41,621 nucleotides of DNA from a bacterium (GTDB lineage Bacteria > Edwardsbacteria > AC1 > EtOH8), in the NCBI GenBank assembly GCA_030655055.1, contig JAURWH010000046.1:1-41621 (forward strand), in the 5' to 3' direction. Numbering within the stretch: position 1 is the first letter of the stretch; each line of letters opens with the position of its first letter. The notes beneath the pieces were generated by a model, which saw only the letters and a list, made by a program, of their open reading frames with translations, ran no database searches and had not been told where the DNA came from. Below, in pieces: positions 3,910 to 38,811 of this stretch. Both the position numbers and the translations under genes were made by a program.

Positions 3910-4130
3910 CCCCGTTTCTTAAGGAAGTTTAGTTTCACCCAGCCCCAGTTGAGCCACAGATGCGCCAGGACAACAAGGACCATGGCCAGCCCGGCATACT
4001 CATGCACCTCCCCGGCGGCCTCGGCGTTCTCCAGCAATCCGGTAAAGGCCAGCGCCCCGGTCACCGCCTGGACGGCAAACAGCGCAAACAGCGCCAGGTT
4101 CAGCCATTTAAGTGTTTTCTGCTTGTTCAT
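3906..4130 (-). CDS. Small two-helix membrane protein with paired histidines (DUF4405-like)
   Basis: The 74-residue protein has two predicted membrane helices (about residues 8-32 and 45-66). A short loop ends in VHEYAGLAMVLVVLAHLWLNW. H43 and H57 are 14 residues apart in or beside the second helix, a spacing resembling haem-ligand pairs in cytochrome b-type proteins, and HEYAGL...HLWLNW resembles DUF4405 proteins. AAGGGGA lies about eight bases before the ATG. The function is not known. It lies between the acetyltransferase and GHL10 genes on the same strand, 48 bases after the latter, and could be co-transcribed. Confidence 0.7.
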   Translation of the reverse strand: MNKQKTLKWLNLALFALFAVQAVTGALAFTGLLENAEAAGEVHEYAGLAMVLVVLAHLWLNWGWVKLNFLKKRG

Positions 4131-33737: not shown

Positions 33738-36700
33738 TTAGTCCTCCTTATACAGTTGAACGTCCAGGCACAGGCCCCTCAGTTCGTTTACCAGCACCTC
33801 AAAGCAGGCCGGGGTGCCGGGCTCGGGCAGGTTGTCTCCCTTGACGATGGCCTCGTAGACCCGCTGTCTTCCCTGGACATCGTCGGACTTGACGGTCAGT
33901 ATCTCCTGCAGGGTGTAGGCCGCCCCGTATGATTCCAGGGCCCAGACCTCCATCTCACCGAAACGCTGGCCGCCGAAATGGGCCTTGCCTCCCAGGGGTT
34001 GCTGGGTGATAAGGGAATAGGGCCCGATGGACCGGGCGTGGATCTTGTCGTCCACCAGGTGGGATAGCTTGAGCATGTACATCACGCCCACCGTCACCGG
34101 CTCGTCGAACGACTGTCCGTTCCGGCCGTCATAGAGGGTGACCTTGCCGTGTTCGGGCAGGCCGGCCAGTTTCATCTCGGACTGGATCTCGGCGATGTTG
34201 GCCCCGTCGAAGATGGGGGTGGCCACCTTGAAGCCCAGGATCTGGGCGGCCCATCCCAGATGGGTCTCCAGCACCTGTCCCAGGTTCATGCGCGAAGGCA
34301 CGCCCAGCGGGTTCAGGATCATGTCCAGGGGCCGGCCGTCGGCCAGGTAGGGCATGTCCTCCTCGGGCACGATCCTGGCCAGCACGCCCTTGTTGCCGTG
34401 CCGTCCGGCCAGCTTGTCGCCCACCATCAGCTTGCGCTTGCGGGAGACGAAGACCTTGACCAGCTTGATGACGTCGGCCGGGAGCTCGTCGCCCCGCTCC
34501 ACTTTTTCCTTCTCGATCTGCAGCTCATACTGCACGGCTTCGATGGCCTTGCGGGCCGAATCCATCAGCTTGACGGCCTTGGCGCCCAAAGCAGAGTCTT
34601 CGCAGATCTGGGCCAGGTCCTCCAGGGGGGTTCTTTCAAATTTTATCTCGTCCAGCACCGCTTCCGACAGGCGCTGCCCCTTGCGGGCCAGCAGTTTTTC
34701 CCCGTCCTTCAGGGTCTGGTTGCAGGGCTGGTCCAGCAGCAGTTCCCGGATCCTGCGGTCGCGCTCGTTCTTGATCCGTTCGGAACGCTTCCGGGCCTCC
34801 TTCTGCATCTCTTCAATCTTGCGCTTTTCCTCCTGGCTGCTCCTGCGGTCCTGGCTCTTGCGGGAGAAGACCTTGACATCGCAGACTATCCCGTCCATGC
34901 CCGGAGGCGCCTTGAGCGAGGTGTCCTTGAAGTCCCCGGCCTTGTCGCCGAAGATGGCCCGGAGCAGTTTTTCCTCGGGGGTCGGCTCGGTCTCGCCCTT
35001 GGGGGTCACCTTGCCCACCAGAATGTCGCCGGCCTCCACCCGGGCGCCTATGCGGATGATGCCGTTCTCGTCCAGGTCTTTCACCGCCTCCTCGCCCACG
35101 TTGGGTATCTCCCGGGTCACTTCCTCCGGCCCCCGCTTGGTGTCCCGCACAAAGCACTCGAAATTCTCGATGTGGACCGAGGTGAACTTGTCATCCTGGA
35201 CCATCTTGTCGGAGATGATGATGGCGTCCTCGAAATTGAAGCCCGACCAGGGCAAAAAGCCCACCAGGCAGTTGATGCCCAGAGCCAGCTCGCCCCCCTC
35301 GGTGGATGAGCCGTCGGCGATGACCTCGCCCTTCTTGACGACCTCTCCCTCGCGGACTATGGGCTTGTGGTTGAGGCAGGTGTCCTGGTTGGAGCGGCGG
35401 AACTTGGTGAGATGATAAACGTCGTACTGGCTGTCCTTCAGGAAATCCACCTCGGCGATGTCGGTCTTGGCCGGCCGGATGAAAACACAGTCGGCGGTGA
35501 CCTTTTCCACCACCCCGTCCCGCTTGCAGAGCACCATGGTCCCGGAGTCCACCGCCGCCTTGCCCTCCAGCCCGGTGCCCACCACCGGCGACTGGGGCTT
35601 AAGCAGGGGGACCGCCTGGCACTGCATGTTGGAGCCCATCAGGGCCCGGTTGGCGTCGTCATGCTCCAGGAAGGGGATCAAGGCGGCCGAAAGGCTCACC
35701 AGCTGCTGGGGCGAAACGTCCATGTAGTGGACCTCCTGGGCCTTGGCCCGGGGAAAGGTCTCGCGGTAGCGGCTCAGGGCCTGTTCTCCCAGGATCTTCC
35801 CGCCGTCGTCCACCGGGGTGTTGGCCTGGGCGATGGTGAACTGGTCCTCCTCGTTGGCCGAGAGGTAGTCCACCTCTCCGGTCAGCTTGCCGTTCTTAAG
35901 CTTGCGGTAGGGCGTTTCCAGAAAGCCCAGCTCGTTCACCCGGGCAAAGCAGGCCAGGGATGCGATCAGCCCGATGTTGGGTCCTTCCGGGGTCTCGATG
36001 GGGCACATCCGGCCGTAGTGGGTGTAATGCACGTCGCGGACCTCGAACCCGGCCCGTTCCCGGGTCAGGCCGCCTGGTCCCAGCGCCGAAAGGCGCCGCT
36101 TGTGCCGCAGCTCGGCCAGCGGATTGGGCTGGTCCAGGAACTGGGACAACTGGGAGGAGCTGAAAAAGCTGTTGACGGTGGAGGAGATGATGCGGGAGTT
36201 GACCAGGTCCTGGGGGGTGATGGAACCCTGTCCGTCCCACATGGCCATCCGCTCCCGGGTCATCCGGGCCATCCGGGAGAGCGCGGCCGAGAACTGGTTG
36301 GAGACCAGCTCGCCGACCCTCAAGATCCGGCGGTTGCCCAGATGATCGATGTCGTCCACTTCGCCCTGGTTCATTCTTAAGGACAGCAGGTAGCGGACCA
36401 CTTCCACAAAATCCTTCGGCCCCAGCACATTGGCGGTGGAGATCTCCTGCCCCAGCCTTTTGTTCAGCTGGTAGCGGCCCACCTTCTTCAGGTCGTAGCG
36501 CTTGCGGTCAAAGAACATCTTTTCGATCACCGCCTTGGAGAGCTCGGGGTTGATGGCGTCTCCGGGGTGAAGGATGTTGTAGATCTTGGAGAGGGCGTCC
36601 TCCTTGGAGCCCTTGTTGTTGTCGGCCAGCATGGTGCGGGGGATGATGGCCGGGTCCTTGACCGGATCGATGGCCACCACCTCCACCTTTTCCACCTTGG

Positions 36701-37508
36701 ACAGCTTGAGGGTGGCCAGGATCTCGGGGGTTATCTTGTGCCCGGCCTCGGCCAGCACTTCGCCGGTCTTGGGGGCGCTGACGTCGCTGAAAAGATAGCG
36801 GTCCAGGGCCTGCTTTTCCCCCGACAGGGAGATGGTCTCCGGCTGGTGGTAAAGGGAAAGCAGGGCCTTGTTGGTGGCAAAGCCCACCGCCCGCAGCAGC
36901 AGGGTGGCGTGGAACTTGCGGTGCTTGTCGATGGAGACCCACAGCAGATCGTTGGGGTCCAGGGTCAGCTTAAGCCAGGAACCGCGGTAGGGGATGATCT
37001 CGGCGGTGTAGATCCTTTTTCCCGAAGGATGGCTTTTTTCGGCGAAGAAGGCCCCGGGAGATCGGTGCAGCTGGCTGACCACCACCCGCTCGGCCCCGTT
37101 GATCACGAAGGTGCCGGTCTCGGTCATCAGCGGCACTTCGCCCAGGAAGACCTCCTTTTCCACCACTTCCTTGGGCTTGCCCTTGGGATCGCTGGGATCC
37201 TTAAGGGACAGCCTGAGGATGGACTTCAGCGGGGCGGCGTAGGTCATGTCGCGGTCGTGGCATTCGGAGATGGAATAGCGGGGCTTGCCCAGGCCGTAGG
37301 AGATGAAATCCATCGCCATCCGGTTCTGGGCGTCCTCGATGGGGAATATCTCGTTGAACACCGACTGCAGCCCTTCGTTCTTGCGTTTTTCCGGAGCCTG
37401 GTGCTCCTGCAAAAAGTCCTTGTAGGAATTGAGCTGCATGTCCAGCATGTTGGGCAGCTGGATCCCCGACTTTATTTTGGAATAATCTTTTCTTTTGACC
37501 GGCTTCAA
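33738..37508 (-). CDS. rpoB: DNA-directed RNA polymerase beta subunit
   Basis: The 1256-residue beta subunit starts from a TTG with AAGGAGG five to six bases upstream (MKPVKRKDYSKIKSGIQLPN). The rifampicin-contact region SSQLSQFLDQPNPL...LRHKRRLSALGPGGL keeps the wild-type Asp, His and Ser, so it reads as rifampicin-sensitive. Later landmarks include GFNFEDAIIIS, GRHGNKGV and the C-terminal GKAHFGGQRFGEMEVWALE. rpoC follows after three bases. The 290-base gap from rplL contains tandem terminator-like hairpins. Confidence 0.98.
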   Translation of the reverse strand: MKPVKRKDYSKIKSGIQLPNMLDMQLNSYKDFLQEHQAPEKRKNEGLQSVFNEIFPIEDAQNRMAMDFISYGLGKPRYSISECHDRDMTYAAPLKSILRLSLKDPSDPKGKPKEVVEKEVFLGEVPLMTETGTFVINGAERVVVSQLHRSPGAFFAEKSHPSGKRIYTAEIIPYRGSWLKLTLDPNDLLWVSIDKHRKFHATLLLRAVGFATNKALLSLYHQPETISLSGEKQALDRYLFSDVSAPKTGEVLAEAGHKITPEILATLKLSKVEKVEVVAIDPVKDPAIIPRTMLADNNKGSKEDALSKIYNILHPGDAINPELSKAVIEKMFFDRKRYDLKKVGRYQLNKRLGQEISTANVLGPKDFVEVVRYLLSLRMNQGEVDDIDHLGNRRILRVGELVSNQFSAALSRMARMTRERMAMWDGQGSITPQDLVNSRIISSTVNSFFSSSQLSQFLDQPNPLAELRHKRRLSALGPGGLTRERAGFEVRDVHYTHYGRMCPIETPEGPNIGLIASLACFARVNELGFLETPYRKLKNGKLTGEVDYLSANEEDQFTIAQANTPVDDGGKILGEQALSRYRETFPRAKAQEVHYMDVSPQQLVSLSAALIPFLEHDDANRALMGSNMQCQAVPLLKPQSPVVGTGLEGKAAVDSGTMVLCKRDGVVEKVTADCVFIRPAKTDIAEVDFLKDSQYDVYHLTKFRRSNQDTCLNHKPIVREGEVVKKGEVIADGSSTEGGELALGINCLVGFLPWSGFNFEDAIIISDKMVQDDKFTSVHIENFECFVRDTKRGPEEVTREIPNVGEEAVKDLDENGIIRIGARVEAGDILVGKVTPKGETEPTPEEKLLRAIFGDKAGDFKDTSLKAPPGMDGIVCDVKVFSRKSQDRRSSQEEKRKIEEMQKEARKRSERIKNERDRRIRELLLDQPCNQTLKDGEKLLARKGQRLSEAVLDEIKFERTPLEDLAQICEDSALGAKAVKLMDSARKAIEAVQYELQIEKEKVERGDELPADVIKLVKVFVSRKRKLMVGDKLAGRHGNKGVLARIVPEEDMPYLADGRPLDMILNPLGVPSRMNLGQVLETHLGWAAQILGFKVATPIFDGANIAEIQSEMKLAGLPEHGKVTLYDGRNGQSFDEPVTVGVMYMLKLSHLVDDKIHARSIGPYSLITQQPLGGKAHFGGQRFGEMEVWALESYGAAYTLQEILTVKSDDVQGRQRVYEAIVKGDNLPEPGTPACFEVLVNELRGLCLDVQLYKED

Positions 37509-37582: not shown

Positions 37583-37635
37583 AAAAAAAGCAGGTGGCCG
37601 CTGCATTTGTCTGATGATTAAAGCAATGCACGGCC
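37583..37635 (-). terminator. Attenuator-like hairpin 2 between rplL and rpoB
   Basis: On the minus strand GGCCG-TGCATT (37625-37635) pairs with AATGCA-GCGGCC (37596-37607) around a loop of about 17 bases, with one bulge. ACCTGC and seven Ts (37583-37589) follow. It lies about 75 bases ahead of the rpoB start and would terminate part of the transcripts. Confidence 0.6.
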
Positions 37636-37638
37636 GCC

Positions 37639-37710
37639 AAAAAAGCAGCGTTTGACGGAGCCTTAAAATGTTTCCGCAGCACCGCAGCCGCAGATGGCCC
37701 CCTCAAACGC
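37639..37710 (-). terminator. Attenuator-like hairpin 1 between rplL and rpoB
   Basis: On the minus strand GCGTTTGAGGGGGCC (37696-37710) pairs with GGCTCCGTCAAACGC (37648-37662) with two mismatches in 15, around a 33-base loop. TGC and six Ts (37639-37644) follow. It is the first of two consecutive terminator-like structures in this gap. A third, smaller hairpin TGCGGCA/TGCCGCA lies at 37733-37751. Confidence 0.6.
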
Positions 37711-37798
37711 CGTTCAAGATATATATCTTTCCTGCGGCAACCACTGCCGCAAAAAGTTTGGCTATGTTTTTACTGGATGTTATTAAGGATGCTGTTTT

Positions 37799-38173
37799 TT
37801 ACTTGAGTTCCACCACGGCTCCGGCCGCTTCCAGGGTGGCTTTGATCTTCTGGGCCTCGTCCTTGGTCACGCCCTCTTTGACCGGCTTGGGGGCGCCTTC
37901 CACCAGGTCCTTGGCTTCCTTCAGGCCCAGGTTGGTGATCCCGCGGACTTCCTTGATCACCTGGATCTTCTTGTCTCCGCCGGAGACCAGCACCACGTCA
38001 AAAGAGGTCTTCTCTTCGGCCGGGGCGGCGGCGGCTCCGCCGGCTGCGGCTGCGGCCACCGGGGCGGCGGCCTTGACGCCGAATTTTTCTTCCAGGGACT
38101 TGACCAGCTCAGCCAGCTCCAGCACCGTCATCTGCTCGATGGCTTCCATTACGACTTGTTTCTTGTCCGACAT
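37799..38173 (-). CDS. rplL: 50S ribosomal protein L7/L12
   Basis: L7/L12 forms the multimeric stalk that recruits translation factors. The start at 38173 ([20 protein letters not shown]) has AAAGGAG ten bases upstream; a longer frame from 38233 runs through hairpin DNA and is rejected. The 124 residues have the dimerisation domain, an Ala-rich hinge ([18 protein letters not shown]) and the C-terminal domain [28 protein letters not shown]. It is followed by attenuator-like hairpins, fitting its need for higher expression than rpoBC. Confidence 0.98.
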
Positions 38174-38217
38174 TTCCTTTTGCTCCTTTATTTGCTCTTT
38201 AATTAATTTTCGGTTTT

Positions 38218-38247
38218 GCCGCCGTAGCGGCACCCCGCCATAGGCGG
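38218..38247. repeat. Two adjacent short GC hairpins between rplJ and rplL
   Basis: GCCGCCGTAGCGGC (38218-38231) and CCGCCATAGGCGG (38235-38247) each form a short stem with a 3-base loop. They occupy the 103-base rplJ-rplL gap, with no T-tract on the minus strand close by. They may be a dispersed repeat or an mRNA-stabilising structure separating the two stalk genes. Confidence 0.5.
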
Positions 38248-38276
38248 TGGTATTGTTTTTTATAGGAACCGGGTTT

Positions 38277-38801: not shown

Positions 38802-38811
38802 TTTAATTATC

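What the first reader, a model, noticed from the sequence alone, without database searches (positions are those of the whole stretch)
37583..37751. Tandem terminator-like hairpins in the rplL-rpoB gap
Two successive structures on the transcribed strand each end in a T-run preceded by TGC: stem 37648-37662/37696-37710 then T6, and stem 37596-37607/37625-37635 then T7. A third small hairpin precedes them. E. coli has a partial terminator between rplL and rpoB that lowers polymerase relative to L12; a doubled version built from unrelated sequence would be a convergent solution. The shared CTGC-T6/7 flank suggests the pair may have arisen by duplication.
Basis: partly seen in the sequence, partly recalled or inferred. 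Interest (0 to 1): 0.6.

Follow-up and report, generated by a model that had tools for sequence, protein, structure and literature searches.

The report
Conserved RNA hairpin before rpoB
Between the genes for ribosomal protein L12 and RNA polymerase, this little-known bacterial phylum keeps one conserved RNA hairpin that probably acts as a leaky transcription brake, a lineage-specific version of a control point known from E. coli; the second 'terminator' that was noticed is a recent extra seen in only two close relatives.

Summary
The hairpins are real. Hairpin B (37646-37712, minus strand, then T6) folds far better than shuffles (z -6.7). It is present once per genome, always in the rplL-rpoB gap, in all 10 held genomes of the phylum (covariance-model E 1e-16 to 1e-24). 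It has no second copy and no significant match in 376 genomes outside the phylum, apart from one chance hit inside leuS. It is not in Rfam. A covarying hairpin (A) lies just upstream. Hairpin C, the 'second terminator', occurs with its T-run only in G000 and its nearest relative, so 'doubled' is not a property of the system and duplication is not supported. Terminator-like hairpins are about 2.7 times enriched in rplL-rpoB gaps of other bacteria, and the E. coli attenuator region at this place is Rfam P26 (RF00630). Best reading: a lineage-specific, leaky attenuator that lowers rpoBC relative to rplL. Its conserved stem and octaloop, the 1-3 nt spacer before the U-tract and the lost U-tract in G003 suggest it may be more than a terminator (protein site or RNase III site). 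No clear promoter lies in the gap, so read-through is needed. The evidence is comparative only.

The parts
37799..38170 (-). rplL (ribosomal protein L12), gene upstream
   Evidence: ORF; 84-99% identical orthologues in 10 genomes
37733..37751 (-). hairpin A, stem UGCGGCA/UGCCGCA, loop GUGGU (pairing extends to about 37728-37755)
   Evidence: z -3.3; in 7 genomes 96% of cells paired, 5 of 10 pairs with changes on both sides, none of the slid controls comes near; a stable hairpin also sits here in the other three genomes, with another loop
37646..37712 (-). hairpin B: conserved core of the element; basal stem CGUUUGA/UCAAACG invariant, inner GGGGCC helix, apical stem with octaloop (37680-37687)
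   Evidence: z -6.7; one copy per genome in all 10 genomes, E 1e-16 to 1e-24; 3 apical pairs with compensatory changes; about half the positions invariant
37639..37644 (-). T6 tract after hairpin B (U-tract of the putative leaky terminator), 1 nt after the extended stem
   Evidence: T4-T6 in 9 of 10 genomes, broken in G003
37593..37638 (-). hairpin C, second terminator-like stem, restricted to the closest relatives
   Evidence: z -2.5; same form only in G000 and G001
37583..37589 (-). T7 tract after hairpin C, 3 nt after the stem
   Evidence: interrupted in G002
33738..37508 (-). rpoB (RNA polymerase beta), TTG start, gene downstream
   Evidence: start region conserved in all 10 genomes

Best explanation
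The rplL-rpoB gap of this phylum carries one conserved cis-acting RNA element (hairpin A, then hairpin B, then a short U-tract) on the transcribed strand. Most likely it is a leaky transcription attenuator: polymerase leaving rplL makes hairpin B and the U-tract, part of the transcripts end there, and the rest read through to rpoBC, so that more L12 than polymerase is made. Shown: position, structure, conservation, single copy, general lack of a promoter-like site in the gap. Inferred: that transcripts end there, the fraction, and whether a protein bound to the conserved stem and loop tunes it. Hairpin C would be a recent extra brake in G000 and G001.
For: Hairpin B is in all 10 genomes, always in this gap, one copy per genome. 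The U-tract is T4-T6 in 9 of 10, with tail scores of 3.1-4.4, against 3.8 for the E. coli attenuator scored the same way. The U-tract lies on the rpoB strand. Terminator-like hairpins in these gaps exceed shuffles (8 against 3.25 of 10) and in other bacteria too (29 of 76 against 10.8). No sigma70-like site of 9/12 or better in the window's gap and only one marginal 8/12 site in one of the ten gaps, so rpoBC need read-through. E. coli has an attenuator at this place that decouples rplL and rpoBC (PMC4670729), with the same order: two hairpins, then U5. The phylum does use intrinsic terminators.
Against: Ordinary terminators of the phylum are compact with the T-run directly on the stem (spacer mostly 0), whereas B is a long irregular hairpin with 1-3 nt before the T-run. 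G003 keeps the hairpin but has no U-tract (CTGTCGTTAG), so the U-tract is not what is best conserved. The invariant basal stem and conserved octaloop are more than a terminator needs. No transcript data.
Confidence: 0.55

Rival explanations
1. Hairpin B is mainly an RNase III processing site that separates the rplJL and rpoBC messages and gives them different stabilities; termination is secondary.
For: The irregular duplex totals about 22 or more base pairs. RNase III is encoded in all 10 genomes. E. coli RNase III cuts in the rplL-rpoB intergenic RNA (PMC2777011). The hairpin survives in G003, where the U-tract is lost.
Against: RNase III sites need little primary sequence, yet the basal stem and loop are invariant or nearly so. 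A U-tract is kept in 9 of 10. In the G000 genus a G.G mismatch interrupts the helix.
Confidence: 0.25
2. Hairpin B (with A) is a protein-binding autoregulatory site: RNA polymerase, L10(L12)4 or another product of the operon binds the conserved stem and octaloop and changes read-through, translation of rpoB, or stability of rplJL mRNA.
For: Sequence conservation beyond structure. The operon has no room for an L10 leader before rplJ (7-11 nt in all 9 genomes measured) and no Rfam L10 leader, whereas the same scan finds one in three other loci. In E. coli rpoBC is under its own autogenous control (PMC10931766).
Against: No similarity to the phylum's own 23S rRNA beyond chance in 5 of 6 comparisons. 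No conserved alternative pairing that would make a switch. Conservation is only modestly above that of fourfold sites in the same genes (0.784 against 0.706 mean pairwise identity, p = 0.06 for invariant sites).
Confidence: 0.15
3. The hairpin is a chance or neutral secondary structure without function.
For: Generic terminator scans of the region equal shuffles.
Against: Ten of ten orthologues with one copy each, compensatory changes in hairpins A and B, and every other gap of the operon unalignable or nearly so.
Confidence: 0.03

Closest known systems
E. coli rplL-rpoB attenuator (the same place carries Rfam P26, RF00630)
   Same: Same gap, same order: hairpin, second hairpin, short U-tract followed by GC-rich DNA.
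   Different: No significant sequence or structure match to model R1 (9.2 bits, E 0.15). E. coli's second hairpin is compact (11 bp, 4-nt loop, U-tract directly attached); ours is long, with a conserved octaloop and a 1-3 nt spacer.
RNase III processing site between rplL and rpoB in E. coli
   Same: Same intergenic region, long duplex.
   Different: Cleavage untested; E. coli has further large structures downstream of the attenuator.
Lacto-rpoB RNA motif (RF01709)
   Same: Listed as a candidate cis-regulatory structured RNA with rpoB in its name, limited to one lineage (PMC2864571).
   Different: Limited to Lactobacillales; no Rfam match here.
L10 leader (RF00557)
   Same: Cis-acting RNA of the same operon.
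   Different: Lies upstream of rplJ with a kink-turn; not detected in this phylum, where the rplA-rplJ gap is 7-11 nt.

Membership tests
Intrinsic (Rho-independent) terminator | Stable GC-rich hairpin | tested here: met
   dG -39.8, z -6.7; -33 to -45 in the relatives
Intrinsic (Rho-independent) terminator | U-tract directly following the stem | tested here: inconclusive
   T4-T6 in 9 of 10 genomes but 1-3 nt off the stem; broken in G003; ordinary terminators of the phylum mostly have spacer 0
Intrinsic (Rho-independent) terminator | Transcripts end in the U-tract | not testable with these tools
   No RNA data
rplL-rpoB attenuator (E. coli type) | Position between rplL and rpoB on the transcribed strand | tested here: met
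   All 10 genomes
rplL-rpoB attenuator (E. coli type) | Homology in sequence and structure to the E. coli element or Rfam P26 | tested here: not met
   R1 against E. coli: best 9.2 bits, E 0.15, not significant; no P26 match in the phylum, whereas E. coli matches P26 at 74.5 bits
rplL-rpoB attenuator (E. coli type) | Partial termination with read-through into rpoBC | not testable with these tools
   Read-through is inferred from the general lack of a promoter-like site in the gap
RNase III site | RNase III present and a duplex of about two turns | tested here: met
   rnc in 10 of 10 genomes; 22-pair structure
RNase III site | Cleavage in the stem | not testable with these tools
   Needs 5' end mapping
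L10 leader (RF00557) | Match to the covariance model, upstream of rplJ | tested here: not met
   No match in the window or relatives; control matches in L024, L079, L104

The most novel reading that the evidence does not exclude
Hairpins A and B form a protein-gated attenuator: a product of the operon (polymerase or the L10-L12 stalk complex) reads the conserved stem and G(U/C)GGU-bearing loops and sets read-through into rpoBC, making this the only conserved regulatory RNA found in an operon that has no detectable L10 leader.
Probability: 0.13. Interest if true: 0.65.

Novelty: new variant of a known kind. Interest (0 to 1): 0.38.

Why it matters
How cells keep L12 (several copies per ribosome) and RNA polymerase in proportion from one operon is a classical question known mainly from E. 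coli. A conserved, lineage-specific RNA at the same junction in a poorly known phylum, together with a general excess of terminator-like hairpins in this gap across bacteria, suggests that a brake before rpoB is a common need met by different RNA sequences. It also gives an undescribed RNA family with a ready covariance model.

Tried and rejected
Duplication of B into C: stems alike no more than shuffles. rRNA mimicry by B: chance-level local alignments in 5 of 6 comparisons, 3 of 100 shuffles in the sixth. Alternative antiterminator pairing: the best partners of each arm lie in different places in different genomes. Rfam families, also at lax thresholds: none. A second copy in the genomes: the weaker hits are mostly self-complements of B itself or lie near chance level. 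Presence in other phyla: not in 94 rplL loci; one genome hit of 376 (G108, E 0.0026) lies inside leuS and is chance. A first structure string for hairpin A was off by two columns and was corrected. Papers on a structured RNA before rpoB outside E. coli and Lactobacillales: none found.

Full report
Check of the observation. The sequence between rplL (37799-38170, minus strand) and rpoB (start TTG at 37508) is 290 nt. Folded alone it is more stable than its shuffles (z -3.3). Hairpin B (37646-37712) has dG -39.8 kcal/mol and z -6.7 and is followed by T6. Hairpin C (37593-37638) has dG -19.7 and z -2.5 and is followed by T7. Hairpin A (37733-37751) has z -3.3. A plain terminator scan of the region gives 13 sites against 12 by chance, so the case cannot rest on T-runs and stems alone.

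Comparison within the phylum. The held collection has 10 genomes of this phylum, in one family and four genera. All ten have the rplL-rpoB gap (183-401 nt between the two genes). All ten contain hairpin B with the same core: CGUUUGA..GGGGCC..CGG(A/C)UG(U/C)GG(U/C)GC(C/U)G..UCAAACG, with GGAGCC for GGGGCC in G006. A covariance model of B (R1) finds exactly one strong copy per genome, always here (E 1e-16 to 1e-24); these sequences built the model, so the point is the absence of other copies. It finds nothing significant in 94 rplL loci of other bacteria. In 376 genomes outside the phylum it gives one weak hit, inside leuS, which is chance.

Structure and conservation. In B the apical stem shows compensatory changes at three pairs, while most of the basal stem does not vary at all. 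An invariant stem supports constraint on the sequence but says nothing for or against pairing. Hairpin A is supported by covariation in seven genomes: 96% of cells paired, 5 of 10 pairs changed on both sides, and slid controls at 58% or less. Identity to the window is 0.69 in B against 0.19-0.36 in the other gaps of the operon and 0.64-0.86 in its genes. A caution: fourfold sites in these highly expressed genes are themselves well kept (0.706 against 0.784 mean pairwise identity in B; p = 0.06 for the share of invariant sites). The argument therefore rests on B being alignable and single-copy where its own flanks are not.

What is not conserved. Hairpin C with its T-run is found only in G000 and G001; G002 keeps part of the stem but has an interrupted T-run several bases away, and the other genera lack it. 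B and C stems are not similar (245 of 500 shuffles as good); only CTGC plus the T-run is shared. The 'tandem' arrangement and its origin by duplication are therefore not supported.

Is B a terminator? The U-tract is present in nine of ten genomes (T4-T6) but sits 1-3 nt off the stem, and G003 has lost it while keeping the hairpin. In 260 kb of G005 most of the strong terminator-like sites are compact, with the T-run directly on the stem. So the phylum uses intrinsic terminators, but B is an unusual one. In the ten gaps, eight have a strong hairpin plus T-tail against 3.25 in shuffles. No promoter-like site was found in the window's gap, and only one marginal site in one of the ten gaps, so rpoBC must be reached by read-through, unless the phylum's promoters differ from the sigma70 consensus. 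A leaky attenuator fits this best. RNase III processing is the main rival: the enzyme is encoded in all ten genomes, the duplex is long enough, and E. coli cuts its own rplL-rpoB RNA (PMC2777011).

Comparison with the known. E. coli's gap holds two tandem hairpins, the second with U5, then GC-rich DNA, and matches Rfam P26 at exactly this place. An attenuator there is known to decouple rplL from rpoBC (PMC4670729). Model R1's best match in 4.5 kb of E. coli lies at this hairpin but is not significant (9.2 bits, E 0.15). The two thus work alike, if at all, without shown homology. Among 76 gaps from other bacteria 29 have a terminator-like hairpin against 10.8 in shuffles; several are close relatives (Bradyrhizobium), so the excess is somewhat overstated. 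A brake before rpoB is therefore probably widespread. The Lacto-rpoB motif (RF01709) is a further lineage-limited candidate RNA with rpoB in its name (PMC2864571).

Operon context. In nine genomes the rplA-rplJ gap is 7-11 nt, which leaves no room for the L10 leader; no Rfam L10 leader is found, while the same scan finds it in three other loci. Among the gaps of this operon B is the only well-conserved non-coding piece. Whether an operon product binds it is an open and testable idea. The loops of A (in seven genomes) and B both contain G(U/C)GGU or a close form, which is a lead only.

Verdict. A real, conserved, undescribed RNA element at a known control point, most likely a leaky attenuator. 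The doubled terminator is a local feature of two genomes.

Noticed in passing
L149 (G001:C4) 3978-4067, between hairpin C and rpoB: G001 has a 90-nt imperfect palindrome (AGCCACATAAAGCACATAA...TGTGCCTTTTGTGGCT), MITE-like, absent at this place in G000; at least six longer copies lie in G001 and a diverged one in G000.
   Followed up: partly
window 38802-38811 and relatives: The rplA-rplJ gap is 7-11 nt in all nine genomes measured and no L10 leader is detected, so the usual L10(L12)4 control site before rplJ seems to be missing in this phylum.
   Followed up: partly
L183 1931-1992 (E. coli K-12 NC_000913.3): Rfam 'Pseudomonas sRNA P26' (RF00630) coincides with the tandem hairpins of the E. coli rplL-rpoB gap, so this 'sRNA' family may simply be the attenuator.
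   Followed up: partly
rplL-rpoB gaps of L013, L021, L028, L034, L070: Bradyrhizobium and related Hyphomicrobiales share a conserved terminator-like hairpin GACGGGCG..GC(G/A)CGTC-GTTTTGCGTTT before rpoB.
   Followed up: no
window 38182-38276: The rplJ-rplL gap of the window carries small GC hairpins (CCGCC-TAT-GGCGG) and is longer (106 nt) than in relatives (51-75 nt); its upstream part is not conserved.
   Followed up: no
L172-L179: 23S rRNA matches are uneven in length: 3149 bases for 2925 model positions in G002, split pieces in G007, and 1379 bases for positions 15-2044 in G003; intervening sequences or assembly faults.
   Followed up: no
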